In this document: piece after piece, positions 40 to 11,010 of the stretch
How positions within the stretch are numbered: the stretch's first letter is position 1
Layout: the number at the start of each line of letters is the position of its first letter
Origin: Xanthobacteraceae bacterium
Lineage (GTDB): Bacteria > Pseudomonadota > Alphaproteobacteria > Rhizobiales > Xanthobacteraceae
Length of the DNA: 11,115 nucleotides
NCBI GenBank assembly: GCA_030044035.1
Contig: JASHWN010000108.1
Span: forward strand, 1 to 11,115
Direction of reading: 5' to 3'
The notes under the pieces: generated by a model
The model's database searches: none
What the model saw: only the letters and a program-made list of their open reading frames with translations
What the model was told of the DNA's origin: nothing
Made by a program: the position numbers and the translations under genes

Positions 40-408
40 ATGCGATCCGCCATTTTCATTCTCGCCGTTCTAGTGCTCAACCTCTATGCACAGCTTGTGG
101 TCAAGGCGCGCGCTGTCGCGCACGCGAAACAGCTCGTGACTGCCTTCCCCCAGCTCAATTACCTCGCTGCGATGTTCACCGACCCTTGGGTACTGAGCGG
201 TTTGGTGGCAGTCGTGCTCGCCGGCGCCTGCTGGATGCTCGCTGTCCAGCGCCTCGTAATCGGCTTTGCCTATCCATTCATGGCGCTGAGCTTCGTGCTT
301 GTCCCAGTCGGCTCGATGCTGTTATTCGGCGAGCCCTTGCCGAAAATGCAAATATTTGCGCTTGCGCTCATCATGGCTGGTGTGACGCTAAGCGCGGTGG
401 CGAGATGA
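40..408 (+). CDS. EamA/SMR-like small membrane transporter (ArnE-like)
   Basis: A 122-residue, very hydrophobic protein with about four membrane segments, roughly residues 3-21, 50-70, 73-96 and 102-120. The stretch AYPFMALSFVLVPVGSMLLF followed by GEPLPKMQ and a final Gly-Val-containing helix is the usual end of a single EamA/SMR unit. Proteins of this size beside glycan genes often resemble ArnE/ArnF, which move undecaprenyl-phosphate-linked sugars across the inner membrane; that substrate is an inference here. The ATG has a GGAAG ribosome binding site at 30-34, five bases upstream, which supports this start. It faces the minus-strand glycan operon with only 39 bases between the stop codons, so it belongs to a different transcription unit entering from the left. 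A single four-helix unit would need to dimerise or pair with a partner, possibly encoded outside the window. Family assignment is fairly safe, substrate unknown. Confidence 0.8.
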   Translation: MRSAIFILAVLVLNLYAQLVVKARAVAHAKQLVTAFPQLNYLAAMFTDPWVLSGLVAVVLAGACWMLAVQRLVIGFAYPFMALSFVLVPVGSMLLFGEPLPKMQIFALALIMAGVTLSAVAR

Positions 409-447: not shown

Positions 448-1197
448 TCAGCTCCGCCGAAGCGGTAAACTTTCATTCTGCGAAGTCCTCAGATAGCGCG
501 GTGCATTCGGCCCCACATTGAACAAAAGGTCGAGCACCGAGACCGAAGCTTCGAATGGGCCGTGCAATTGCGGATATTGTGGATAGCGTTCGTAGCTCAT
601 CCATTCGACGGCAACGCCTGCTCCGGCAAGCAGCGGTACATCGAGATAAGCTTTGGCGGAGGGTCCGCTCAGATAGCAGCCGGCTCCAGCGGCGCGGATG
701 ATCGCCAATACCCGCTCGGTCTTGGTTCCCTGAGCAGGATACGCGGTGTCGCGCACGAAGCGGGTGCCAAGCCCGAGCAGCGCGGCGATTTCGCTGAGAA
801 ATATCGCGTTGACTTCGGTCAGCAAGCGCTCCCTGGCGGCCCGCTCGTACCAGCCGCGCACGCGCGGCGCCACGGCGTCAAAAAATGGCGCGCGCCGGTA
901 GGCCAGTTCGAGCGCGCGCCAATGCTGCTCGGCCCACGGCTTTTCGACCTCCGCCGCGTCGATCGTCTGCTGGCGCCGCCCTGTGGTGATCACCGGTATG
1001 GTGAGCCATTGCGGTCCGGTGGCAGTCTTGATGCGGTTGCGGTTATGCCAGTGACGCTTGACGTACTGGACGTGATCGAAAATCACGTATTCGTCGCAGC
1101 GTCCGATCAGGTCGAAAAAACCCCGCCACGGAATGTAACACGATTGAATGATCGAAATGCGCACGTGTTTCTGAACCTGGAAAAGGCTCGAGTTCAC
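448..1197 (-). CDS. WbqC-family glycan biosynthesis protein
   Basis: A 249-residue protein of the WbqC-like family (Pfam WbqC). The family pattern is clear: IIQSCYIPWRGFFDLIG near residue 16, then a D-x-V-Q-Y-x-K-R-x-W block near residues 41-50, the NRNRIKT motif at 52-58, WLTIPV at 64-69, and a C-terminal LDLLFNVG. Members are common in O-antigen and other polysaccharide clusters; the reaction they catalyse is not settled, so none is claimed. The GTG at 1197 overlaps the TGA of the upstream methyltransferase gene as GTGA, suggesting translational coupling. The next in-frame GTG at 1164 places the start at the family's usual N-terminus (RISIIQS) and is a real alternative. No strong Shine-Dalgarno sequence precedes either. 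This is the last gene of the minus-strand run. I saw no hairpin-plus-T terminator in the 39 bases before the convergent gene. Confidence 0.9.
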   Translation of the reverse strand: MNSSLFQVQKHVRISIIQSCYIPWRGFFDLIGRCDEYVIFDHVQYVKRHWHNRNRIKTATGPQWLTIPVITTGRRQQTIDAAEVEKPWAEQHWRALELAYRRAPFFDAVAPRVRGWYERAARERLLTEVNAIFLSEIAALLGLGTRFVRDTAYPAQGTKTERVLAIIRAAGAGCYLSGPSAKAYLDVPLLAGAGVAVEWMSYERYPQYPQLHGPFEASVSVLDLLFNVGPNAPRYLRTSQNESLPLRRS

Positions 1198-2213
1198 TGG
1201 CCGCGGCTGGTGCTGCCCTCATCCATTCCGGCCGTGGCCGCCAGGGTTTGGCTTTGACGATCAACGGATTTGATTGCGATCCGGCCATTATGATCAATGC
1301 GATTGAGCAACAAGACGACTCCGTTCTGCTCGCAAAACTCGTCAACCGCCTGTTTCTGTCCCGGCATCTCGCCATAGTCATCGATAATGAGGACTCCACC
1401 AGGCGCCAAGCGTGGGTAGAGGTGGCGCAGTTCGTGGGCGGTTGAATCGTACCAGTCGGTGTCAAGGCGCAGCAGCGCAATTGCCTTAGGAGCGCTCGCC
1501 GGTATCGTTTCCTGCACGATGCCTTTGACAAAGGATAGCTTGCCAAACGGATAACCAGTCGACCTGAGATTACCGCGCACCTCTTCCAGTGCCGCTTCCG
1601 CCCAGGAGCTTGACTGATCTGTGCGCCTGCGCTGCAGCCAAAATTCGTAGTGCTCTTTGCAGTCGCGCTCGGGATTGGGCCGCGGATGTCCGGCAAAGGT
1701 GTCGAACAAAACTAAGCTTCGATCGGTCTTCCCAAGCGCGAGCAGCGTCAAGGCGGCCATCATCATGCTGCCGCCACGCCACACGCCGCATTCCACGATC
1801 GCACCTTCGATGTCGGCTCGCGCCACGTGTTCGACTGCCTTGTGCATGGCATAGAGGCGCTCGATCGAGGTCATGGTGTAAGGCTTGACGCGCTCGTACA
1901 GCGCGAAGAATTCGGGATCCGTGAGTTCGAACTTGCGAAGTTTGGCGGCGAAATCGGTCAGCACCTGATAGTCGACTGTTGTGCCGGGAGCTGTGATCGA
2001 ATGCTCTAACGCAGCAATGGTATCCTGCATGTGGGCGAGCGCCTGTTGCGTGAGGACAACGTATCCGGCGCGTTCTGCGACGCCGAGCACCGTTCGCTTA
2101 AGCCAAGGCGGCAATGTGATCGGCATTCGAACGTTGCACGAGATGAGAGCTGTTGCGGCTTTCTTGACGCGGCTTGGCGAATTTTCCGCCGGCCGAACAA
2201 ACGTCGATACCAT
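1194..2213 (-). CDS. TylF/MycF-type O-methyltransferase
   Basis: A 339-residue SAM-dependent, probably metal-assisted sugar O-methyltransferase of the TylF/MycF (macrocin O-methyltransferase) family. The SAM-binding region is GAIVECGVWRGGS (137-149). It is followed by LVLFDTFAGHP (167-177), the LRLDTDWYDST block (249-258) and GGVLIIDDYG (272-281), whose Asp residues match the acidic metal and catalytic sites of the family. Characterised members methylate sugar hydroxyls on macrolides; in a glycan cluster the likely target is a sugar of the exported polymer or its precursor (inference). The ATG at 2213 gives a 29-residue N-terminal stretch with no obvious domain. An ATG at 2126 (MPITLPPWLKR) is an alternative. 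The gene starts 30 bases after the SIS gene and shares a 4-base overlap with the WbqC gene downstream. The only good ribosome binding site nearby is too far from the ATG (see findings). Confidence 0.9.
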   Translation of the reverse strand: MVSTFVRPAENSPSRVKKAATALISCNVRMPITLPPWLKRTVLGVAERAGYVVLTQQALAHMQDTIAALEHSITAPGTTVDYQVLTDFAAKLRKFELTDPEFFALYERVKPYTMTSIERLYAMHKAVEHVARADIEGAIVECGVWRGGSMMMAALTLLALGKTDRSLVLFDTFAGHPRPNPERDCKEHYEFWLQRRRTDQSSSWAEAALEEVRGNLRSTGYPFGKLSFVKGIVQETIPASAPKAIALLRLDTDWYDSTAHELRHLYPRLAPGGVLIIDDYGEMPGQKQAVDEFCEQNGVVLLLNRIDHNGRIAIKSVDRQSQTLAATAGMDEGSTSRGQ

Positions 2214-2243: not shown

Positions 2244-2828
2244 TTACCATTTCGTAGCACGGCTCTGCAGCTTCGGATGCGATACCAGGCAATGCCAGAC
2301 GACAGCCTGGAACGCCTCGGTATGCGGCGTGACACGCGATTGCTCGACGGTCGGAATGACGACGACTACGTCACCTGACTGTTTGGTATAGCCGCCGTCG
2401 CGGCCGACAATTCCCAAGATTCGCGTGCCGCGGCTTTTGGCTTCCTGGACGGCAGCGACAAGGTTGGCGCTGACGTTCTTCTCCAGATTGCCGCCGCCTA
2501 CGGAAAACACCAGGATGGCATCGTTGGGCCCGGCGCGGCTCACCTTCAGCCATTCGGCGAATACCGTGTTCCAGCCTTCGTCGTTGGTGCGCGCGGTAAG
2601 CTCGGAGACGTTGTCGGTCGGCGCATAGGCCTCTATGCCGCACAGCTTGCGAAAGTCGTTGACAGCATGGCTGCAATTGCCGGCGCTGCCGCCGACGCCG
2701 AGGATGAACAGGCGACCCTCGCGCTCGCGCAGGTCGGCAAGTTCGTCGCAGAGCGCCTCGATGGCGTCGGGGTCGAGGCCGCGCGCCGTTTCGCACACCT
2801 CCTCGAGGAACTTCGCCGCGTGGCTCAC
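2244..2828 (-). CDS. SIS-domain sugar-phosphate isomerase, GmhA-like
   Basis: A 194-residue single SIS-domain protein, the usual length of phosphoheptose isomerases (GmhA), which convert sedoheptulose 7-phosphate to D-glycero-D-manno-heptose 7-phosphate. Seen in the sequence: the phosphate-binding GVGGSAGNCSH (44-54), a second loop FSVGGGN (108-114), and a C-terminal helix TEAFQAVVWHC (170-180). By comparison with E. coli GmhA, recalled from memory (zinc site His61, Glu65, Gln172, His180), the equivalents here look like His54, Asp58, Glu171 and His179, so two ligands differ. A ketose/aldose sugar-phosphate isomerase role feeding the glycan is likely, but the exact substrate is not proven. The GTG at 2828 was chosen because GGGAGGA lies three bases upstream and the length fits. 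The frame stays open to 3038, overlapping the previous gene; an in-frame ATG at 2900 would add 24 residues and cannot be excluded. Confidence 0.85.
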   Translation of the reverse strand: MSHAAKFLEEVCETARGLDPDAIEALCDELADLREREGRLFILGVGGSAGNCSHAVNDFRKLCGIEAYAPTDNVSELTARTNDEGWNTVFAEWLKVSRAGPNDAILVFSVGGGNLEKNVSANLVAAVQEAKSRGTRILGIVGRDGGYTKQSGDVVVVIPTVEQSRVTPHTEAFQAVVWHCLVSHPKLQSRATKW

Positions 2829-2831
2829 GGG

Positions 2832-2838
2832 TCCTCCC
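2832..2838 (-). promoter_or_regulatory. Strong ribosome binding site for the SIS gene
   Basis: The minus strand reads GGGAGGA followed by CCC and then GTG. It is the best Shine-Dalgarno match among the minus-strand genes and decides the start at 2828 against the upstream ATG at 2900. The spacing is short, and the same bases could encode Gly-Gly in a longer protein, so the call is not certain. Confidence 0.6.
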
Positions 2839-2961
2839 AAACGACCTGAACGCAGCGCTTCTTCTAGCAGGCACCCGGTGGTCGCGTCGATACCGCGCAT
2901 TCGCCGTGGCGTCCGCGTCAGCACAGCGGCGGACCTGGTGCGACGGTCTGCTCCGACATCG

Positions 2962-3816
2962 TTAATCGATTTTGAATCCGAATCGTCGCTTGATCCGACG
3001 GCCCAATTCGATCGCGAGGGTGCGCCCGGGAATCTCACGCAAGCGCCAGTTGTTTACCTGTCTGCTGTCCAAAATCTCTCCGTCGATTACCCTCGGATAC
3101 CGGCTCAATGCCTCCGGCACTTTGGTCTCATATTCCTCTTGAAAAGGCACACAGAACTCTCGCTCGAACGTTTTCCGCTGCGCTACGACGAGAAGATGCG
3201 TTGTTTTGGCGGATAGAGTCAAATAATCGAGCAAGATGGGATCCCACGGTATGAAGCTGGCAATTTGCCAATCCGGCCCAACCCAAACACCAAGCGTTTC
3301 ATACGAATTGTAGCGAGCCAATGCTCTGAAGAAATTCGGCTGGTAGTTGAAGAAGCCATGCTCCAAATGCACTGTGAATGGAACGGCATGGACGAACACC
3401 GCGCCGGCGCGTGCAAAATCATGCATGCTCTTGAATACGTTGTACTGGTTTAGAATATGTTCCGACGTACCATGGTTGGTGACAAGCCCGTATTTGCCCC
3501 TGTGCTCCGCCGGGACCGAATCGAAATTCAGATCCATCACTATTGATCCGGGGCGGTGATCCACGTCGACACATGCGTAATCGATGCCAAGCGCCGTGTA
3601 GAGCAGACGCGCCGGCAATTGGTTGGCGTTGGTCGTGGCAAGTAATTTTTGAGCAGGTTCGCCGCGGCCGAAGGCAGCGAACAGACCGCGCATCAGATTT
3701 TGCTGTGGGCACCAATAGTCCTGAGATCCAAGTTCGATGACATTGGTGATCCCTTCGAACGCGCCCTGTAGTTTGAGCTGCCTATAAAGCTCGATGATGG
3801 GTGGCCCTAGCCCCAT
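2962..3816 (-). CDS. SAM-dependent methyltransferase-like protein
   Basis: A 284-residue class I methyltransferase-like protein. VIELGSQDYW (26-35) occupies the place of SAM motif I, ACVDVDHRPGS (81-91) the acidic loop after strand 2, and a block at 110-146 (LVTNHGTSEHILNQYNVFKS, then MHDFARAGAVFVHAVPF) follows the pattern of strand 4 and the post-strand-4 helix in methyltransferases found in polysaccharide clusters. LEHGFFNYQPNFFRALA (151-167) is a further recognisable block. The likely role is methylation of a sugar or glycan intermediate in the cytoplasm, but the acceptor is unknown and motif I lacks the full Gly-x-Gly-x-Gly pattern. The ATG is preceded by GAGG (3824-3827) at seven bases, so the start is well supported. 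The gene lies 133 bases before the SIS gene and follows the degenerate gap at 3817-4191. The last 20 residues are rich in Arg and Lys. Confidence 0.75.
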   Translation of the reverse strand: MGLGPPIIELYRQLKLQGAFEGITNVIELGSQDYWCPQQNLMRGLFAAFGRGEPAQKLLATTNANQLPARLLYTALGIDYACVDVDHRPGSIVMDLNFDSVPAEHRGKYGLVTNHGTSEHILNQYNVFKSMHDFARAGAVFVHAVPFTVHLEHGFFNYQPNFFRALARYNSYETLGVWVGPDWQIASFIPWDPILLDYLTLSAKTTHLLVVAQRKTFEREFCVPFQEEYETKVPEALSRYPRVIDGEILDSRQVNNWRLREIPGRTLAIELGRRIKRRFGFKID

Positions 3817-3820
3817 AAGG

Positions 3821-4046
3821 TTACCTCAAGAACGCAACTATAACAGCGATTATACCGGCCAATGCTACAAAGACCAGCAATATTGAAAGACACCCTGCGA
3901 TGCGTCGGACACTTCGGACCGGGTCTTGTATGCGAGCGACCGCGCGCGCCGCACAGTAAATTCAGTCCTGAAACTCGTCCACGTTGACCTGAAGATTGTC
4001 GAATCGCGCCATGCGGCACGCGCGTTGGCAGCCGGTCGATCGGCGC
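3821..4046 (-). pseudogene. Broken third copy of the tandem-protein C-terminal tail
   Basis: From 4029 the minus strand encodes ANARAAWRDSTIFRSTWTS, then a short divergent stretch and EFTVRRARSL, matching ANARAARRDSTIFRSTWTS and EFTVRRTQSL of the 615-residue protein ending at 5110. No start codon or body of that protein precedes it. The bases just upstream (4046-4030) match the 615-residue gene with one base missing, which shifts the frame. In the tail frame a stop falls at 3865-3867. In a third frame the sequence reads LSILLVFVALAGIIAVIVAF and ends at TAA 3821-3823, four bases before the next gene's ATG, as if a longer gene once ended there in a membrane helix. Three different frames carry recognisable protein-like pieces, which is what decay by small indels produces. 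That this is a remnant is well supported by the homology; its original extent is not known. Confidence 0.75.
3905..4046 (-). repeat. Direct repeat copy 2 (tail repeat, left of SGNH gene)
   Basis: This 142-base stretch aligns with 5124-5265 in the same orientation with a single one-base deletion. Over the 117 bases from 4029 to 3913 I count 24 mismatches, about 79% identity. The two copies flank the SGNH hydrolase gene and could allow recombination that deletes or exchanges it. Confidence 0.8.
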
Positions 4047-4191
4047 GCGTCGCGGCGCAGTGTCGAACGGCACCGGCACGCGTGCTCTCATCACGCGGTA
4101 AGCGAGGCTGTTGAAAAGGAGGTGAATGCCGCGCCTCACCGATTTGATCATGTTTGAGCGCCGCCCCCCCCGGATTATATTCCAGTTGAGC
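4047..4191. other. Intergenic stretch with TATAAT box and G8 tract
   Basis: Between the SGNH stop codon and the tail remnant I see no convincing gene. On the minus strand there is a perfect TATAAT at 4179-4174, then CC and a run of eight G at 4171-4164. No good TTGACA-like -35 lies 16-18 bases upstream, so promoter function is only possible. A minus-strand frame opens at ATG 4151 (MIKSVRRGIHLLFNS) with no ribosome binding site and becomes the frameshifted remnant; I do not call it a gene. Confidence 0.4.
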
Positions 4192-5103
4192 CTAATGGGA
4201 TTTGGCGAGCGGGTGCTGCATGATGCATTCCAGCCAAGCTTGCGCCACAGCGTCGAGACCCTTCTCAGAGAAATGACAACCGTCGTGGCGGAAATCGCCG
4301 ATAAATTGATCAGTATCGGGGCCGGGCAGGACATCAGGCGGCGACACGAGCTGCCGCTGGGCACGGCGAATTTGCTCATGGTTCTGGTAGGGGTGCGGAC
4401 CGTTAGCGCAGTGAGAAGCTAGCGCGACATAAACCGGTGCTTCTACGCCGACACGCCTGATTTCCGTGAGAAGCCGCCGAAACCGCGCCTGGTATTCCTG
4501 TGCTGAGGTCATCACACGATTGGCATCCGCCTCCCCGTGATGCCAGCACAGCATATCGGGTCGAATTCCGGCTCGCTTCAACCGCGTGAGGGCCAGCATG
4601 AGGCGGCGGTAGCAATAACCGTCCCGCGGCGTCCAGTCCTTGATATACGAGCCGCCGACGGCGATAGGCACAAATAGCACCGATTGAAACAGGTCTGCTT
4701 CAATCAACTTGTCGCCCAGCCGGCCCCAGATCGAGCCGCCGTCGTTCGTCGCCCCGGGCAGGGGATCGATGGCCCGGTAGTAGTTCATGTCAAAAACATT
4801 GAAAGCATAGACGCCACGACGCGCCACGTAGCACTGCGCGCCGGCGTTTGCCGCATTGGATTGGCCGAACGTCAGGATGACGACGGTTTCATGCTGAAGG
4901 GCAACGCCGGCATCAACGCGCCTTTCTGGCGTGACAGGCGCCTCCGCAGGCGCGCCGAGATAGGCGCCGAACGCGGCCGCGTAGTCGACAGTGCCATCAT
5001 CGCGGGCAAAGGACCTGTAATACACATGCTGTGCCATCCGACGGATGTAACTCGCCATCCGGTGGACCGGATTTCTAACCGAAGTCGGCGGCTTCTTTGT
5101 CAC
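4192..5103 (-). CDS. SGNH/GDSL hydrolase, sialate O-acetylesterase-like
   Basis: A 303-residue carbohydrate esterase-like protein of the SGNH hydrolase superfamily, closest in style to the sialate-O-acetylesterase (SASA/CE6-like) group. Block I is TFGQSNAAN (78-86), with Ser82 as the expected nucleophile. Gly150-Gly151 in VPIAVGGSYI fits block II, CWHHGEAD (186-193) block III, and DGCHFSEKG (274-282) supplies the Asp-x-x-His of the catalytic triad (Asp274, His277). It probably adds to, or trims acetyl groups from, sugars of the exported glycan. There is no signal peptide or membrane helix, so it should act in the cytoplasm, before export, unlike many secreted esterases. The start is a GTG six bases after the stop of the 615-residue gene; ATGs at residues 16 and 23 are alternatives. 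The gene sits between two direct repeats of the tail sequence, hinting at cassette-like gain. Confidence 0.85.
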   Translation of the reverse strand: MTKKPPTSVRNPVHRMASYIRRMAQHVYYRSFARDDGTVDYAAAFGAYLGAPAEAPVTPERRVDAGVALQHETVVILTFGQSNAANAGAQCYVARRGVYAFNVFDMNYYRAIDPLPGATNDGGSIWGRLGDKLIEADLFQSVLFVPIAVGGSYIKDWTPRDGYCYRRLMLALTRLKRAGIRPDMLCWHHGEADANRVMTSAQEYQARFRRLLTEIRRVGVEAPVYVALASHCANGPHPYQNHEQIRRAQRQLVSPPDVLPGPDTDQFIGDFRHDGCHFSEKGLDAVAQAWLECIMQHPLAKSH

Positions 5104-5109
5104 GTCCCA

Positions 5110-6957
5110 CTACAGTGTCGTCGCCGAAAGTTCGGACCGGTTGTTGCGTACGAGCGATTGCGTGCGCCGAACCGTAAATTCCATCGTCAGGCTGGTCCAC
5201 GTCGACCTGAAGATCGTCGAATCGCGCCGCGCCGCGCGCGCATTGGCGAGCCGAACGACCGGCGCCAACAACAGGAGCGTCATGCCGATGATCAAAGCCC
5301 GAACTACCGGCGTGGATTGAAACTGCCGCGACGCCCGAAGGTACGCCATGGCCAAGAACCAAGTAACAGCATCACCCCAAAAATGAATTTGCGAAACGTC
5401 CACGCTCGGAAAGGCCACCTCCTGAAGAACCAGATGGGCACCCTCGAAGACCTTACCTCGCTTCGCAACGTAGACAAGGATATGACCGCCATTCTTCACC
5501 AGCGGCCGCAAATTAGTGTAGAGCCGGTCGATTTTCAGGAGATCAAGGAGCGTCAACTCGCAAATGCAGGCGTCAAAGGGCGCCTTTCGTTCAATCGCCT
5601 CGCCAAAGTCGGCGCCGAGAGCCTTGGCTAGATCGACGTGCGCCCCGCCCAGCCTGCGCTGGAGCAGCGAAACGCTCGAACTGATCCAAAGGATGTTCGG
5701 CTTGCCGGCGGCGCCCCAGGCCGTGACCGCCCGCGCTATCGGCGACATGTCGGCCCATAGCGGGTGGAATCTGCCGACCCGCGGCGGCGAGCCGAACGTT
5801 CTGCGATAGATGGTCTGCAGCGCATCGAGCAAAGGCTTTGCAGCGGCTTGGCGGCGCGAGCCCGCCGCGACACCGTCACGCTGGCGCGCCGTCGTCTCCC
5901 TGAACCATCGACCGAGAAGCGGATGATCAACATGGGAAGCTGGCGTCGGCGACAGGCGACGATCAACCTCGGCCAGGTAGGCGCGCGCTTGTTCGCTCAC
6001 CTCGTTGATATCGGCCGGCAGATCGGCGGCATGAAATTTCAACAGCTGTTTGCCGGATTCTCGTTGCTCCTTGGTCAGCCAGACGGACAGATCGCGAGCA
6101 ATTTTGGCATAGCTCGTCCAACCGATCCGAATCATCTCGCGCCCGGTGTCGCGGCTCTGCGGCTCGATCATAAAGAACTGGTCGGAATCGCCGATGAAAT
6201 GCCGCGGCGCCGCGGGCGCAGCCTCGGGAATGAACCCGAAGTCCCATACCACAACGGGATTGGGAACCACGCGCTCCGGCTTAATCGCGACTAGCGCTAC
6301 CGGCGCCTGATAGCCGATCAACGTGTCCTCATCGACGTACCAATAAAATTGATCCATCCATGATTGGTGGCTAAGCCGCTGATTGACTGTGCGCGCCTTC
6401 ACCGTCGGATGCTTGTTGGCGAGAGCGAGCTTGACCATCCGGCGCGGCTCGAGGCGCAACGTGCATGACGCGGTATCGATCAGAGCCTGCAGTTGCGGCC
6501 AGACGTCCTCGGCGACGACGCGGAAGCTCGGCGCATGGATCACGCGATTGCCCTCGCGCATCAGTTTGCCGAGGTGGCCGAGCGCACCGTCACAGACGAT
6601 GAAGTCGGCGTTGAGAAACAATAGGTAGCTCTCGGTCATGCGGGCGCCGAGATCGGCGAAACCGCGAAACAACGCGTGCGTGAGCGTGACACCGTAATCG
6701 CTGGCAAAATCCGTCAGCACGTCGTCGAGAGGGACCAGCCGCGCCGCGCAGATGCGCTCGACTGCCGCGAACGATGGCGCGCGGCGGAACAGATCGAACA
6801 GCCGCGACTCGGTGACAATCACGAGCTCGACCGCGAACGTTCGGCACAGTTCCGGCAAGTTTCCCGGCGCGAGCACAGCGGGGAGCGTCATCGATATGAC
6901 CTTGTCGGCGTATCGCTCGCCCCAAACCGGAATGATCAAACGCGCGGACTCTTTCAT
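5110..6957 (-). CDS. Two-domain glycan protein, tandem copy A (615 residues)
   Basis: I do not recognise a named family for the whole protein. Residues 1 to about 340 form a domain starting SARLIIPVWGE, with TLPAVLAPGNLPELC, ELVIVTES (44-51), an acidic NADF (116-119), ANKHPTVKART (180-190), MDQFYWYVDEDTLIGYQ (201-217) and FIGDSDQFFMIEPQSR (254-269). The alternating hydrophobic strands and acidic loop suggest a glycosyltransferase GT-A-like fold, but this is inference. A linker follows, then from about 418 a region (PNILWISSS; FDACICELTLLDLLK; LRPLVKNGGHILVYV) resembles the C-terminal half of class I methyltransferases without a clear Gly-rich SAM motif. Residues 552-571 are hydrophobic, followed by a conserved tail, so the C-terminus may contact the membrane. 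The ATG overlaps the stop of copy B as ATGA, indicating coupling. It is about 67% identical to copy B over residues 1-350, without gaps. Confidence 0.8.
   Translation of the reverse strand: MKESARLIIPVWGERYADKVISMTLPAVLAPGNLPELCRTFAVELVIVTESRLFDLFRRAPSFAAVERICAARLVPLDDVLTDFASDYGVTLTHALFRGFADLGARMTESYLLFLNADFIVCDGALGHLGKLMREGNRVIHAPSFRVVAEDVWPQLQALIDTASCTLRLEPRRMVKLALANKHPTVKARTVNQRLSHQSWMDQFYWYVDEDTLIGYQAPVALVAIKPERVVPNPVVVWDFGFIPEAAPAAPRHFIGDSDQFFMIEPQSRDTGREMIRIGWTSYAKIARDLSVWLTKEQRESGKQLLKFHAADLPADINEVSEQARAYLAEVDRRLSPTPASHVDHPLLGRWFRETTARQRDGVAAGSRRQAAAKPLLDALQTIYRRTFGSPPRVGRFHPLWADMSPIARAVTAWGAAGKPNILWISSSVSLLQRRLGGAHVDLAKALGADFGEAIERKAPFDACICELTLLDLLKIDRLYTNLRPLVKNGGHILVYVAKRGKVFEGAHLVLQEVAFPSVDVSQIHFWGDAVTWFLAMAYLRASRQFQSTPVVRALIIGMTLLLLAPVVRLANARAARRDSTIFRSTWTSLTMEFTVRRTQSLVRNNRSELSATTL
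5124..5265 (-). repeat. Direct repeat copy 1 (tail repeat, right of SGNH gene)
   Basis: The 3' end of the 615-residue gene, encoding the end of its hydrophobic segment and the conserved LANARAARRDSTIFR tail. It repeats at 3905-4046 in the same orientation. The copy B gene encodes the same protein tail near 7015-7115, but its DNA is less similar to the remnant in the parts I compared. Confidence 0.8.
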
Positions 6958-8843
6958 GAGATTGCGTCTTCTGCTTCCGCGCGGCTTGGATCGAGACGCG
7001 GCGCAATGGAACTATGGCGCTTGACCGTGAATTCGACCGTCAGGCTCGTCCACGTCGTCCTGAAAATCGACGGATCGCGGCGCGCCGCCCGGGCATTCGC
7101 CAGCCACACCAGGGGCGACAGCAAAATGAGAGAGACTAGGATCGCTCCTCGCGCCACCGGACGCGTTGCAACCGGGCGCATCGCCCGTACATGAAGCGCT
7201 CGCAACAGAGCGATGATTGCCGTTCCGTGGAAATTGATTTGCGAAACATCAAGGTCGGGAAACTCACAGCAACTGAGGAAAAGCTCAGCGCCGTCGAAGA
7301 CGCCGCCGACCTTCGCCGTATTAAAGATGACGGACCCACCATCTCTCATCAGCGGCCGCAGCGCGGCATAGAGCCGATTAAGCTCCGACATTTCCCTCAA
7401 TGCGAGCTCGCAAACGCACAGGTCATAGGGCGCCTTCTCGGAAAATGGACCGCGCTTATCGGGTGCCTGACCGCTGGCATGACCCTGGTTGGCCAAGAGC
7501 CGCCAGTTGCCCGAATTGATCCAGAGAACGTTGGCACGGCCGGTCGGTTGCCACCTCGCCGTCTTCTGGGCGAGGGGTGCAGTCTCCGTCCAGAGCGGAT
7601 GAAATTTGCTGACCTTCGGAGGCGCGCCAAACATTCTGCAGTAAAGCCTTTGCAACGCCTTGGTCGCAGAGGCCAAGAAATAGGTGCCAGACGCTGCGCT
7701 GCGGAAGGTCGAACCGGCAGGTGTCTGGCCAGCCCGCGGCGATGGTTCGCCCTCCTGCGCGCCGAGCTGGCGCAGGCTGGCGTCGTCGAACCAGCGGCCA
7801 AGAAGTGGATGGCCGAAATGCGGCGCCGGCGACGACGGCAGCCTTCGATAGAGTTCGGCCATGAAAGCCCGCGATTCTTCGATCACGCCGTCGATGCTGT
7901 CCGGGAGAGCGGCGGCGTGAATCTTTATCAACTGCCTGCCTAGCCGCCGGTGCTCCGTGGTGGCCCGCAGCGATTCAGTCCAGGCCAGTTCATCGAACGA
8001 CGTCCAGCCCATCCGAGTCATCTCCTGCCCGGTACTTCGGCTTTGCGGCTCGATCATGAAAAAATCATCCGAGTCGCCGATAAGATACGGCTCGGCGGCG
8101 GGGGCGGCCTCGGGCAGAAAGCCGTAATCCCAGAAGCTGACCGGCTGGCTGACAAACCGCTCAGGTTTGACGGCGACAAGCGCCGGCGGCGACTGATAGC
8201 CGATCAAGGTGTCGTCATCGACGTACCAGTAGAACTGATCCATCCATTCTAAATGGTTGAGTCTCTGATTGATCGTGCGGGCTTTTACGGTCGGGTGCTT
8301 GTTTGCCAGGGCGAGTTTCGCAAGCGCGCGCGGCGCCACGCTCAAGACGCTCGAATCATGATCGACGAGCGCCTGCAGTTGCGGATCGACATTTTCGGCA
8401 ACGACCCGGAAGCTCGGCGCATGAATGACCCGCTTGCCTTGCTGCATCAACGCGCCGAGGTGTCGGAGCGAGCCATCGGCGATGACGAAATCGGCAATGA
8501 ATGGCAGGAGATAGGTTTCCGTCACCCGCGGCCCCAGATCGGCAAAGCCGCGAAACAGCCCATAGGTAAGCACCATCCCGTAATCGGTGAAGACGCTGGT
8601 CAATAGATCGTCGAGCGGGACGAGCCGCGTCTTGCAGATGCGCTCGGCGGCCCGGAAAGAGCCCGCGCTGCGCACCATGCCGAGCAAGCGCGATTCGGTG
8701 ACGATGACGAGTTCGACGTCGAACGTCCCGCACAGCGCCGGCAGGTTGCCCGGTGCCAACATGGCCGGAAGCGTGACCGACAGGACCTTGTTGACGTAGG
8801 CCTCGCCCCAGACCGGAATGATCAGCCGCGCGGATTCTGCCAT
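6954..8843 (-). CDS. Two-domain glycan protein, tandem copy B (629 residues)
   Basis: Paralogue of the 615-residue gene directly downstream, with the same order of parts. It has an N-terminal domain (SARLIIPVWGE; ELVIVTES 44-51; IADF 116-119; ANKHPTVKART 180-190; MDQFYWYVDDDTLIGYQ 201-217; LIGDSDDFFMIEPQSR 254-269), then a longer and divergent linker (about 355-405). A methyltransferase-like region follows (ANVLWINSG; YDLCVCELALREM; LRPLMRDGGSVIF), then a hydrophobic segment (about 565-583) and the LANARAARRD tail. The frame is open back to 8993, but the ATG at 8843 is chosen because its product aligns from the first residue with copy A and avoids a 68-base overlap with the ATPase gene. AGGAG lies 18 bases upstream, so the start signal is weak. 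The 82-base gap before it has no gene. Enzymatic role unknown; the context says glycan assembly. Confidence 0.8.
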   Translation of the reverse strand: MAESARLIIPVWGEAYVNKVLSVTLPAMLAPGNLPALCGTFDVELVIVTESRLLGMVRSAGSFRAAERICKTRLVPLDDLLTSVFTDYGMVLTYGLFRGFADLGPRVTETYLLPFIADFVIADGSLRHLGALMQQGKRVIHAPSFRVVAENVDPQLQALVDHDSSVLSVAPRALAKLALANKHPTVKARTINQRLNHLEWMDQFYWYVDDDTLIGYQSPPALVAVKPERFVSQPVSFWDYGFLPEAAPAAEPYLIGDSDDFFMIEPQSRSTGQEMTRMGWTSFDELAWTESLRATTEHRRLGRQLIKIHAAALPDSIDGVIEESRAFMAELYRRLPSSPAPHFGHPLLGRWFDDASLRQLGAQEGEPSPRAGQTPAGSTFRSAASGTYFLASATKALQRLYCRMFGAPPKVSKFHPLWTETAPLAQKTARWQPTGRANVLWINSGNWRLLANQGHASGQAPDKRGPFSEKAPYDLCVCELALREMSELNRLYAALRPLMRDGGSVIFNTAKVGGVFDGAELFLSCCEFPDLDVSQINFHGTAIIALLRALHVRAMRPVATRPVARGAILVSLILLSPLVWLANARAARRDPSIFRTTWTSLTVEFTVKRHSSIAPRLDPSRAEAEDAIS

Positions 8844-8925: not shown

Positions 8926-9729
8926 TCATCCTTGCCCGGTGGCCACCTTGGATTGGTAGAGCGAAACGATCTGCTCCAGCGGCCCATAGGCAACCATCTT
9001 GCCCTGTTCCAAAAGCAGGCCCTTGTTGCACCACTGCCGCAGTATCGGCATGCTGTGACTGGCGATGACCAGGATGCCGGCCCTCGAGAGAAAAGTCTTC
9101 AACCGCGCGTCGGCGCGACTGAGAAACGCGGCGTCTCCGGCACCGATCATTTCATCCAAGACCAAAATTTCCGGGACGACGGCCGTCGATATGGCAAAGG
9201 CCAGCCGCAGCGCCATGCCGGTCGAATAGGCGCGGATTGGCATGTAAAGGTAATCGCCGAGCTCGGTAAAATCGGCGATATCGTCAAGCGCGTCCTTGAT
9301 CTCCTTCGTCGTCAGGCTGAGCATCTTGCCGCGCATCCAGATGTTCTCGATGCCGGTGGCGTCCGGATCCATGCCGAGCTGAAGATCGAACAGCGGAAAC
9401 ACGCGCCCGTTGGCCTGGATCGCGCCGCCGACCGGCTCATAAATGCCGGCCAGCGTCCGCAACAGCGTCGTCTTGCCCGAACCGTTATGGCCCACCAGCC
9501 CGACCCGATCGCCTTCCAAAATCTCGAACGACACGCCGTCGAGCGCCTTGACCACGATCCTGCCGGTTTCTCCAGCGCCGATCTGGCCGCCGACGTTCAG
9601 GTTTCTCGTGGCAATTCGGCTGATACCCTTGGCAAGGTGCTTGATGCCGAGCGAATACTTCAACGACCGCATACGGGGGTCGTAGATCGGAAACTCGACG
9701 TGAATGTCTTTGGCGATGATCGACAACAT
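8926..9729 (-). CDS. Polysaccharide ABC exporter ATPase (Wzt/KpsT type)
   Basis: A 267-residue ATP-binding subunit of an ABC-2 polysaccharide exporter. It has Walker A GHNGSGKTT (80-88), the signature YSTGMALRLAF (168-178), Walker B EILVLDEM (187-194) and the switch His225 in VIASHS. The N-terminal 60 residues, with VEFPIYDPRMRSLK (11-24), are the extension typical of the Wzt/KpsT/TagH group. It powers transfer of a lipid-linked glycan across the inner membrane with the permease encoded just upstream. It ends soon after the ATPase fold, so it lacks the C-terminal carbohydrate-binding domain that reads chain ends in O9a-type Wzt. This fits a KpsT-like mode where export does not depend on a terminal sugar modification (inference). 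The ATG lies seven bases after the permease stop. The upstream Shine-Dalgarno match is weak, and coupling to the permease is likely. Confidence 0.96.
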   Translation of the reverse strand: MLSIIAKDIHVEFPIYDPRMRSLKYSLGIKHLAKGISRIATRNLNVGGQIGAGETGRIVVKALDGVSFEILEGDRVGLVGHNGSGKTTLLRTLAGIYEPVGGAIQANGRVFPLFDLQLGMDPDATGIENIWMRGKMLSLTTKEIKDALDDIADFTELGDYLYMPIRAYSTGMALRLAFAISTAVVPEILVLDEMIGAGDAAFLSRADARLKTFLSRAGILVIASHSMPILRQWCNKGLLLEQGKMVAYGPLEQIVSLYQSKVATGQG

Positions 9730-9736
9730 CGCTGCA

Positions 9737-10540
9737 CTAAAGCCAATAGACGATGCGGGAACGGAAGCGGGCGAAGAACAAGAACGTTCCAGTCCAGCCG
9801 ACGACAGTGAGGGTCAAAACGACCAACCAATCGTTCAGCGTCGGCGCGCCGCCCAACAACGGTTCGCGCACCAGCGCGATCATATGCGTGAACGGATTAT
9901 AGTCGGCAATGAAGCGCTTCTGCCCGAGCTGCTCGGGAAAATACATCAGCGGCGTCACCCAGAAAAGAACGGTGATGATGTTGGTAATCATCAGCGGAAC
10001 GTCACGATACCGAGCCGAGATGACAGCCGCTACCAGAGCTATCCACGACAGGCAGAGGACGACGAGAAGCAAGCCCAGCGGCCACAGCACCATGCTTGGA
10101 CTTGGCACGACAACAAAATACAAGGCGATAGCAACGTAGATTGCCAGATTATGGCCGGCTATGATGAGATTGCGCCAAAGCGTCTGCAGCAGGAACACGG
10201 TCAGCGGGCATTTGATCTGGGTGATATAGCGCGCCGATGCGACGAATAGCCCGGCACCGTCGTTGATGGTTTGCGTGATGAGCGCCCACAGCAGCATGCC
10301 GGCGCAGACATATGGAAACGATTTTGCAAGTTCGGACCCGAACAGGAAGGCGCTCAAGAAGCCCATCGTGAAAATCTGGATGCCGAACGACAAGGTCATC
10401 CAGATCGGCCCCAGCGTGGAGCGCCGGTATCTTTGCTTGACGTCCTGCCACGCCAGGAAATGACTGAGCCGCCAGGACGAAAGGCCGGTACGCAGATCAT
10501 CGACAGCGGAAGACAATTGTGTCGAGGTCAACGCTAGCAT
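9737..10540 (-). CDS. Polysaccharide ABC exporter permease (Wzm/KpsM type)
   Basis: ABC-2 family membrane subunit with about six transmembrane helices. Recognisable blocks, numbered from this start, are LAWQDVKQRYRRSTLGPIW (29-47, amphipathic N-terminal segment), ISARYRDVP (174-182), LFWVTPLMYF (192-201) and NPFTHMIALVREPLLG (215-230). It forms the channel for export of a lipid-linked polysaccharide. The ATG at 10540 gives 267 residues, the usual length, and begins MLALTSTQ just ahead of the family's first conserved segment. GGGGAG lies 13 bases upstream, a long spacing. ATGs at 10561 and 10627 are in frame; the latter would add 29 mostly basic residues (MAAIRPHLRL...) that do not look like part of the family, though it has a weak GGAA six bases upstream. 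It is the first gene of the minus-strand operon, divergent from the RgpF-like gene. Confidence 0.93.
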   Translation of the reverse strand: MLALTSTQLSSAVDDLRTGLSSWRLSHFLAWQDVKQRYRRSTLGPIWMTLSFGIQIFTMGFLSAFLFGSELAKSFPYVCAGMLLWALITQTINDGAGLFVASARYITQIKCPLTVFLLQTLWRNLIIAGHNLAIYVAIALYFVVVPSPSMVLWPLGLLLVVLCLSWIALVAAVISARYRDVPLMITNIITVLFWVTPLMYFPEQLGQKRFIADYNPFTHMIALVREPLLGGAPTLNDWLVVLTLTVVGWTGTFLFFARFRSRIVYWL

Positions 10541-11010
10541 GCGAAAGCGGCGGCTCCCCATCCGCGAATTCGCGGGTTGCTTAGCAAGGCGCCATGGCAG
10601 CCGCAAGTGCGGCCGAATGGCCGCCATGCCGGGTTCCGGGCGTGAAGTCGTCGGGTCTCGCCGTGCCGGCTCAAAAGCCCGGCGGCGCGGCTGAAGCGGC
10701 TAAATTGGCAATTTCCGTCGGAGGCTCCGGCCGCGATATGCTGAGCACTAGGTCGAACATTCCCTGACCGACGATGGACGTTCCGCGCCTGCGCCTCCAG
10801 GTCCACACAAACCGGCCGGCTTTCTTCGTAACCGCTCGGGGGCGATATCGGGTAATAATCGCGGATATTGTTCTCGGCGCTGACGCGATTTTATCGGTGT
10901 TCGATCGATTCGGATTCAATGCGCGGGTGCGGCTCGACTCAAGACTTCCGCCATGGTTACCTTGGTCGACAGCCCGCTCCGTCGCGCTGCGAAAATTCGT
11001 AGGTCACTCG
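10541..11010. other. Divergent intergenic region between exporter operon and RgpF-like gene
   Basis: About 470 bases that should hold the promoters of both divergent units. I see no convincing -35/-10 pair on either strand. An imperfect hairpin (GCCGGCT / AGCCCGGC around CAAA) lies at 10665-10683. On the plus strand a frame in phase with the RgpF-like gene is open from ATG 10774 and includes RLPPWLPWSTARSVALRKF before 11011, so the gene could start earlier. It uses rare-looking codons (TTA, AGA, ATA) and has no ribosome binding site at 10774, so I treat it as noncoding. The minus-strand frame at 10671-10919 looks accidental. Confidence 0.5.

What the first reader, a model, noticed from the sequence alone, without database searches (positions are those of the whole stretch)
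5110..8843. Tandem pair of large two-domain proteins with no recognised family
Seen: two adjacent genes with a 4-base ATGA overlap encode 629 and 615 residues. Their first 350 residues align without a gap at about 67% identity by my count (234 of 350). They share a methyltransferase-like region, a hydrophobic segment and a conserved tail, but their linkers (about 350-410) differ in length and sequence. Blocks kept in both, such as MDQFYWYVD, GYQ, IGDSD and FFMIEPQSR, look like an active site. Inference: a duplicated bifunctional glycan-assembly enzyme, perhaps a GT-A-like transferase fused to a methyltransferase-like module. Copy divergence could give two linkage or acceptor specificities, or a heterodimer.
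Basis: partly seen in the sequence, partly recalled or inferred. Interest (0 to 1): 0.7.

Follow-up and report, generated by a model that had tools for sequence, protein, structure and literature searches.

The report
Paired unannotated GT-A glycosyltransferases
Two neighbouring genes in a bacterium's sugar-polymer export gene cluster probably encode a pair of related but non-identical sugar-transferring enzymes of a family that the databases searched do not name, each carrying a methyltransferase-like part that seems to have lost its cofactor site.

Summary
Genes A (6954-8843) and B (5110-6957) overlap by ATGA and share 234 of their first 350 residues ungapped. Neither reaches a curated Pfam or NCBIfam cut-off. 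AlphaFold models of A (pLDDT 67.5) and B (89.6) give residues 1-345 a GT-A fold; best Z for A and B: AvpGT 13.5 and 13.2, K4CP 13.0 and 13.2, SpsA 10.8 and 11.5. D118, D202, D239, D259 and E265 are invariant in 86 of 86 aligned homologues. The C-terminal half is methyltransferase-like, but the motif I glycines are present in only 3 of 86, so 'bifunctional' is not supported. A and B are old paralogues, not a recent duplicate: an AU test rejects a joint clade (p 0.003). The GT module also occurs fused to SASA, TylF, GmhB-like, fasciclin or TPR domains and shares a locus with Wzm/Wzt in 6 of 27 fetched loci. Best reading: two GT-A transferases building a glycan exported by Wzm/Wzt. Donors and linkages are unknown. 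A 3' remnant of a third, B-like copy lies at about 3903-4046.

The parts
6954..8843 (-). gene A, 629 aa: GT-A domain + linker + degenerate methyltransferase-like part with hydrophobic helix
5110..6957 (-). gene B, 615 aa: same architecture, older paralogue of A
7809..8843 (-). A residues 1-345, GT-A fold (model confident to about residue 180)
5923..6957 (-). B residues 1-345, GT-A fold
6601..6612 (-). B residues 116-119 (NADF), at the DxD position after strand 110-114
   Evidence: D118 and F119 invariant in 86 of 86
8487..8498 (-). A residues 116-119 (IADF); residue 116 is I in 17, V in 2 and N in 13 of 32 A-clade proteins
6181..6189 (-). B residues 257-259 (DSD), candidate catalytic-base motif
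   Evidence: D259 86 of 86, D257 85 of 86; role by inference
8067..8075 (-). A residues 257-259 (DSD)
7011..7592 (-). A methyltransferase-like C-terminal part (approximate bounds, from the alignment with B)
5164..5757 (-). B methyltransferase-like C-terminal part, residues about 401-598, with 28-residue hydrophobic helix 550-577
3903..4046 (-). truncated 3' end of a third, B-like copy (C-terminal about 45 codons; its frame runs on to a stop at 3865)
   Evidence: 115 of 147 alignment positions identical to the 3' end of B
9737..10627 (-). Wzm-like ABC permease
   Evidence: Pfam ABC2_membrane E 3.7e-10; NCBIfam galactan Wzm/RfbD E 4.3e-68, below cut-off
8926..9729 (-). Wzt-like ABC ATPase, 267 aa
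   Evidence: NCBIfam galactan Wzt/RfbE E 3.5e-82, below cut-off
4192..5103 (-). SASA-family (SGNH) esterase-like protein; fused to the GT module in L048 and L050
2962..3816 (-). protein with a weak, below cut-off Methyltransf_23 match; relatives recur near GT modules
2244..3038 (-). SIS-domain protein, GmhA-like below cut-off (start uncertain; overlaps the preceding gene)
1194..2213 (-). TylF-like O-methyltransferase
   Evidence: Pfam TylF E 5e-48
448..1197 (-). WbqC-like protein
   Evidence: Pfam WbqC E 7.5e-69

Best explanation
A and B are two GT-A-fold glycosyltransferases of a family not named in the libraries searched. They act at the cytoplasmic side of the membrane on a glycan that the neighbouring Wzm/Wzt ABC transporter exports. 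In each, residues 1-345 bind the nucleotide-sugar donor (D78/D79, D118 at the DxD position) and catalyse transfer (candidate base D239 or D257/D259, with E265). The C-terminal half is derived from a class I methyltransferase but has lost the usual SAM-binding glycine motif, so it most likely serves as a scaffold, acceptor-holding or membrane/partner-docking part, helped by a hydrophobic helix (B 550-577). The pair is kept because the two transferases are not interchangeable: they add different residues or linkages of the repeat, or work as a heterocomplex. Shown by computation: GT-A fold (predicted models), conservation, gene context, old divergence. Inferred: activity, catalytic roles, origin and role of the C-terminal half, membrane contact, division of labour. 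Donor sugar unknown.
For: GT-A fold in two models: A (pLDDT 84-97 in 17 of the first 18 ten-residue blocks, one at 66; poor later) and B (mean 89.6). Of the 50 entries listed per model by VIA, 49 for A (the other is an IspD-type cytidylyltransferase) and 50 for B are glycosyltransferases or proteins with a glycosyltransferase domain (titles as printed). Foldseek: 73 and 70 PDB matches at E<=0.001, GT-A enzymes prominent. Weak sequence links to GT2 at the 'LLFLNADF' strand: Pfam GT2 E 0.0018 and 0.0085 in 2 of 10 distant members; hhalign local segment 94-137, P 0.0019. Acidic residues D78, D118, D202, D239, D259, E265 invariant in 86 of 86. Wzm and Wzt adjacent in the window and on the same fetched stretch as a GT module in 6 of 27 loci: adjacent in L004, L045, L053, about 2 kb away in L055 and L057, 6.6 kb in L054. 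GT module fused to SASA (L050), TylF (L056), Methyltransf_11 (L064) or a GmhB-like HAD domain (L114). A-type and B-type proteins each form a clade (32 and 31 rows, SH-aLRT 100, quick tree), and 9 of 13 contig pairs recognised by equal contig length have one member in each. Precedent: PssG/PssI of Rhizobium leguminosarum, two homologous GT-A-type enzymes that interact, serve complementary functions and contact the membrane by C-terminal amphipathic helices (PMC9961541, passages seen).
Against: No member has been assayed. No profile reaches a known GT family at a curated cut-off: Pfam GT2 matched 4 of 29 members of A1, best E 0.081, and 0 of 10 more distant members (E<=0.1). No GT chain in the PDB was found by sequence. 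hhalign against 8 GT2 proteins of the same genome was weak: prob 14.3 local and 0.1 global with the 86-row profile, 2.3 local with the 15-row profile. The metal motif is NAD/IAD, not a classical DxD, and in A residue 116 is I. Foldseek also matched GT-A-fold nucleotidylyltransferases. The helix has a low hydrophobic moment (0.07-0.32), so it is not a clear amphipathic helix. 279 of 296 family genomes searched have no match to the family at all.
Confidence: 0.65

Rival explanations
1. A and B are truly bifunctional: GT-A transferase plus active SAM methyltransferase that caps or decorates the glycan.
For: The C-terminal half is methyltransferase-like: Foldseek rows include AtPMT1, an FPP C6-methyltransferase and CFA synthase at E 1.4e-5 to 1.3e-4, hhalign prob 80.9 over 54 columns, single PDB sequence hit a tRNA cmo5U34-methyltransferase at E 0.036. 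D or E at B position 442 in 50 of 86. L064 carries the GT module with a Methyltransf_11 domain above cut-off.
Against: Motif I glycines (G at both B 426 and 428) in 3 of 86; by a looser rule, 12 of 86 have GxG somewhere in 418-449, several of them before the strand. 11 of 15 methyltransferases taken from the same genome carry [DE]xGxG somewhere. This part evolves faster than the GT domain (38% against 66% A/B identity). The gene cluster already has a TylF methyltransferase.
Confidence: 0.12
2. A and B form an obligate heterodimer that performs one transfer step, one copy being mainly structural (A, with I116), like PssG/PssI.
For: Coupled ATGA genes in 3 of 3 same-genus loci that show both genes, the window included; residue 116 is I or V in 19 of 32 A-clade proteins but N in 31 of 31 B-clade proteins; PssG/PssI precedent.
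Against: A keeps D118, D239, D257-D259 and E265. 13 of 32 A-clade proteins still have N116. Interaction was not modelled.
Confidence: 0.25
3. The N-terminal domain is a GT-A-fold sugar-1-phosphate nucleotidylyltransferase, making a donor rather than using it.
Against: The leading VIA rows are glycosyltransferases. The G-x-G-x-R signature of these enzymes (recalled) is absent from the first 60 residues of A and B.
Confidence: 0.05

Closest known systems
GT2-like GT-A glycosyltransferases (AvpGT, SpsA, K4CP and PmHS2 modules, TarP/TarS, RmlT, WrtF)
   Different: 7-16% identity in the VIA rows; no Pfam GT2 match above cut-off; NAD/IAD in place of DxD; extra C-terminal methyltransferase-like part
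PssG/PssI pair of Rhizobium leguminosarum (PMC9961541, passages seen)
   Same: Two homologous GT-A-type proteins in one polysaccharide locus, complementary functions, C-terminal parts at the membrane
   Different: PssG/PssI have about 324 residues and belong to a Wzx/Wzy pathway; A/B have about 620 residues with an added domain and lie by an ABC transporter; no sequence comparison was made here
ABC-transporter-dependent O-polysaccharide assembly of Klebsiella O4/O7 (PMC11231755, abstract and passages seen)
   Same: Glycan polymerised at the cytoplasmic face by GT modules spread over single- and multi-module proteins beside wzm/wzt; in O7 one protein joins a methyltransferase part to GT modules
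   Different: In O7 the methyltransferase-kinase is active and ends the chain, and the O4 Wzt is predicted to carry a carbohydrate-binding module; here motif I is missing and no such module was matched in the 267-residue Wzt
Class I SAM-dependent methyltransferases
   Same: The 'YDaCiCEL...RPLmkdGG' region aligns with the central methyltransferase segment
   Different: Motif I glycines absent in 83 of 86 aligned members

Membership tests
GT-A-fold glycosyltransferases (superfamily) | GT-A fold | tested here: met
GT-A-fold glycosyltransferases (superfamily) | Metal-binding DxD or equivalent | tested here: inconclusive
   D118 invariant 86 of 86 but preceded by NA or IA
GT-A-fold glycosyltransferases (superfamily) | Sugar transfer from a nucleotide sugar | not testable with these tools
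   needs an enzyme assay
Pfam Glycos_transf_2 (PF00535) | Profile score above the curated cut-off | tested here: not met
   no match for A or B at E<=1; 4 of 29 members, best E 0.081
Class I SAM methyltransferase | Methyltransferase fold | tested here: inconclusive
   Foldseek rows with probability up to 1.00 but target TM-scores of 0.22-0.33 for the whole two-domain model, hhalign 80.9, E 0.036; the domain was not folded alone
Class I SAM methyltransferase | Motif I glycine loop for SAM | tested here: not met
   G at both 426 and 428 in 3 of 86; control [DE]xGxG 11 of 15
ABC-transporter-dependent polysaccharide biosynthesis locus | wzm/wzt-type transporter genes beside the biosynthesis genes | tested here: met
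   NCBIfam galactan Wzm/Wzt models matched below their cut-offs
PssG/PssI-type complementary GT pair | Interaction and non-redundant function | not testable with these tools
   needs two-hybrid or pull-down and deletion tests
Stealth (PF11380) | CR2 profile above cut-off | tested here: not met
   12.5 bits against 39.4 for A; 6 of 29 members, best E 0.18

The most novel reading that the evidence does not exclude
A large GT-A glycosyltransferase family, spread through Alphaproteobacteria and annotated only as hypothetical or by its partner domain, works as sets of neighbouring non-identical modules (pairs or triples) that together form a polymerase. In it, degenerate methyltransferase, fasciclin, TPR, esterase or phosphatase domains are exchanged as docking or tailoring parts; A and B are one such hetero-polymerase with pseudo-methyltransferase scaffolds.
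Probability: 0.3. Interest if true: 0.65.

Novelty: new variant of a known kind. Interest (0 to 1): 0.45.

Why it matters
It gives a probable activity to a protein family that the libraries searched leave unnamed (488, 487 and 138 relatives at E<=0.001 in three capped searches, the first two overlapping) and that is matched, in whole or part, in 27 of 385 sampled genomes of the class, the window's own included. If confirmed it adds a GT-A family to glycan assembly, could name missing polymerases in glycan loci of Alphaproteobacteria, and offers a case of a methyltransferase-like part kept without its cofactor site.

Tried and rejected
Pfam DUF4350 matched 15 of 29 members, best E 0.00017; in B 17.1 bits against a cut-off of 30.4, at residues 81-171. 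Not used, because it is below cut-off and the two structure models give that region a GT-A fold. Stealth_CR2: below cut-off. PHROGs: no match at E<=0.1 for A, B and three relatives. PDB by sequence: no GT for A or for profiles A1 and A3.

Heptose donor: considered because the SIS neighbour is GmhA-like (51 of 209 bits), SIS relatives of the same sort lie near GT modules in L045, L047, L049 and L062, an epimerase gene in L049 matches the ADP-heptose epimerase model far below cut-off (41 of 275 bits), and one relative fuses the GT module to a GmhB-like phosphatase domain (L114: above cut-off for TIGR01656 and TIGR01662, below for the GmhB models). No heptose kinase or heptose nucleotidylyltransferase was seen among the neighbour genes scanned at E<=1e-5 (20 entries, 18 different genes, each against one or two libraries), so the donor is left open.

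Recent tandem duplication: rejected by the AU test (p 0.00267), with the reserve that the group was named after the tree was seen, that a quick tree was used and that it ran on 81 thinned rows.

VIA rows list no methyltransferase; they are filled by the GT domain, so this says nothing about the C-terminal half. The hydrophobic helix is not clearly amphipathic.

Literature: searches showed no paper on these proteins among the titles listed (66, 67 and 78 listed 10 of 129, 12 of 126 and 6 of 40); only the open-licence PubMed Central set was searched. CAZy could not be searched.
Full report
Observation. The window carries a minus-strand gene cluster, probably one operon: Wzm, Wzt, A, B, SASA esterase-like, a weak Methyltransf_23-like protein, SIS protein, TylF methyltransferase and WbqC-like protein. 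A has 629 and B 615 residues, with an ATGA overlap. All four named blocks are present at equal positions. The window belongs to an incomplete 3.3 Mb assembly (68% complete). The three named loci most like A (L004, L005, L012; 78-85% in the best segment) are from Xanthobacteraceae MAGs.

Families. Neither protein passes a curated cut-off in Pfam or NCBIfam. A search of about 5.8 billion proteins gave 488 relatives of A among 7996 scored candidates; where the 120 listed bear a name it is 'hypothetical protein'. A profile of 15 diverse members gave 487, again without an informative name among the 120 listed.

N-terminal domain. The A model (29-row alignment) has pLDDT of 84-97 in 17 of the first 18 ten-residue blocks but is poor later (mean 67.5). 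The B model (86 rows) has mean 89.6. Re-alignment of Foldseek's candidates puts glycosyltransferases on top in both: best Z for A and B are AvpGT 13.5 and 13.2, K4CP 13.0 and 13.2, PmHS2 12.4 and 12.0, SpsA 10.8 and 11.5. GT-A-fold nucleotidylyltransferases also appear, in Foldseek and once in 50 VIA entries for A, but the G-x-G-x-R signature of that group (recalled) is absent. Sequence support for GT2 is weak and local: 2 of 10 distant members hit Pfam GT2 at E 0.0018 and 0.0085, 0 of 10 others did, and hhalign of the 86-row profile against 8 GT2 proteins of the same genome pairs residues 94-137 with a GT2 stretch that includes the DxD segment (probability 14.3, P 0.0019). The 15-row profile gives only 2.3%, and the local control against methyltransferases gives 0.1% with either profile. 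Invariant in 86 of 86 are, among others, N33, D78, T93, R98, D118, F119, H183, D202, W206, W238, D239, D259, E265, G279, T295 and H309. D118 lies at the DxD place; D239 and D257/D259 are candidate bases (inference; no coordinates were superposed residue by residue).

C-terminal half. The B model shows strands 422-426, 461-468, 487-498 and 521-527, a 28-residue helix 550-577 and a last strand 589-595. Foldseek lists several methyltransferases among its best 50 rows, with low whole-model TM-scores. hhalign against 15 methyltransferases of the same genome gives probability 80.9 over 54 columns (12.6 global), and 0.1 against GT2. The only PDB sequence hit at E<=10 is a tRNA methyltransferase at E 0.036. 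Pfam methyltransferase profiles match few members weakly (Methyltransf_11 in 4 of 29, best E 0.085). The SAM loop is missing: G at both 426 and 428 in 3 of 86, while [DE]xGxG occurs in 11 of 15 control methyltransferases (the looser region count gave GxG in 12 of 86, several of them before the strand). Hence a probable pseudo-methyltransferase; the fold is likely but not settled, and other cofactor use is not excluded.

Pair. In a quick tree of 123 rows, A-type (32) and B-type (31) proteins form two clades, each with SH-aLRT 100. Of 13 pairs that I picked by equal contig length in the 120 rows, 9 have one member in each clade and the other 4 pair members of other clades. Adjacency was seen directly for the window and for L004 and L045; one pair has neighbouring locus tags, VH684_10940 and 10935; for the rest it is assumed. 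Holding A and B together costs 46.65 log units, p-AU 0.0027, on 81 rows. So the two are old paralogues, and pairing seems to have happened with different subfamilies. 20 positions differ with at least 90% fixation in each clade, 16 of them in residues 1-345. Residue 116 is N in all 31 B-clade proteins but I or V in 19 of 32 A-clade proteins.

Spread. 17 of 296 family genomes and 2 of 299 phylum genomes match the A1 profile, the window's own included in both; 27 of 385 class genomes match the wider A2 profile, own included, many over the GT region only and two over C-terminal stretches only. Several hold two or three GT modules on one contig (G622 three within 4.4 kb; G608 and G727 two matches 6-24 bases apart). 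Fusion partners seen: SASA, Methyltransf_11, TylF, TPR, fasciclin and GmhB-like HAD. Relatives of the fasciclin type are named after that domain or as hypothetical.

Context. 27 stretches were searched with the window's genes (L007 and L051 show the same contig, and some others are parts of one contig). Wzm and Wzt are both present in 6 (adjacent to the GT module in 3, about 2 kb away in 2, 6.6 kb in 1), SASA in 8 (2 fused), and relatives of the window's Methyltransf_23-like protein in 7 when L007 and L051 count once. Many stretches are short, so absences mean little. In the two same-genus stretches that show the region after B (L045, L062), B is followed directly by SIS and TylF. In the window, SASA, a piece of a third GT gene and the Methyltransf_23-like gene lie between B and SIS. 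The piece (about 3903-4046) is identical to the 3' end of B in 115 of 147 positions (78%) and to B of two other genomes in 112 of 146 and 109 of 142 (77% each), so it is about as far from the window's B as from theirs. It looks like what is left of an inserted or lost B-like gene; how it came about is open.

Function. Best reading: two GT-A transferases at the membrane, building the chain that Wzm/Wzt exports. ABC-dependent systems with GT modules spread over several proteins are described for Klebsiella O4 and O7 (PMC11231755, abstract and passages seen). PssG/PssI give a precedent for a pair of homologous, interacting GT-A-type enzymes (PMC9961541, passages seen). Donor, acceptor, linkage and chain end are not known.

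Noticed in passing
window about 3903-4046, minus strand: Truncated 3' end of a third, B-like copy between the SASA gene and the Methyltransf_23-like gene; the family profile matched only these C-terminal residues (587-630 of the profile).
   Followed up: partly
window about 3040-5109 against L045 11851-11931 and L062 1012-1092: SASA gene, remnant and Methyltransf_23-like gene are absent between B and SIS in two same-genus genomes: an insertion in the window or a loss there.
   Followed up: partly
L050 9020-12202; L048 9435-12623: About 1060-aa proteins: GT module, methyltransferase-like stretch and SASA in one chain, between Methyltransf_23-like and TylF-like genes; hints that the separate SASA protein of the window acts on the same glycan.
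   Followed up: partly
L114 418-2460: GT module followed by fasciclin and a GmhB-like HAD phosphatase domain in one protein; possible clue to a heptose donor.
   Followed up: partly
L110, L113, L114 and relatives P0217 on: Fasciclin domains, usually thought of as extracellular adhesion domains (recalled), fused behind a GT-A-like module.
   Followed up: no
L007 1-8871: Three Methyltransf_23-like genes and two GT modules (one in two frames at the contig end) in one locus.
   Followed up: no
window 40-408, plus strand: Small EamA/ArnE-ArnF-like membrane protein (below cut-off) facing the end of the gene cluster.
   Followed up: no
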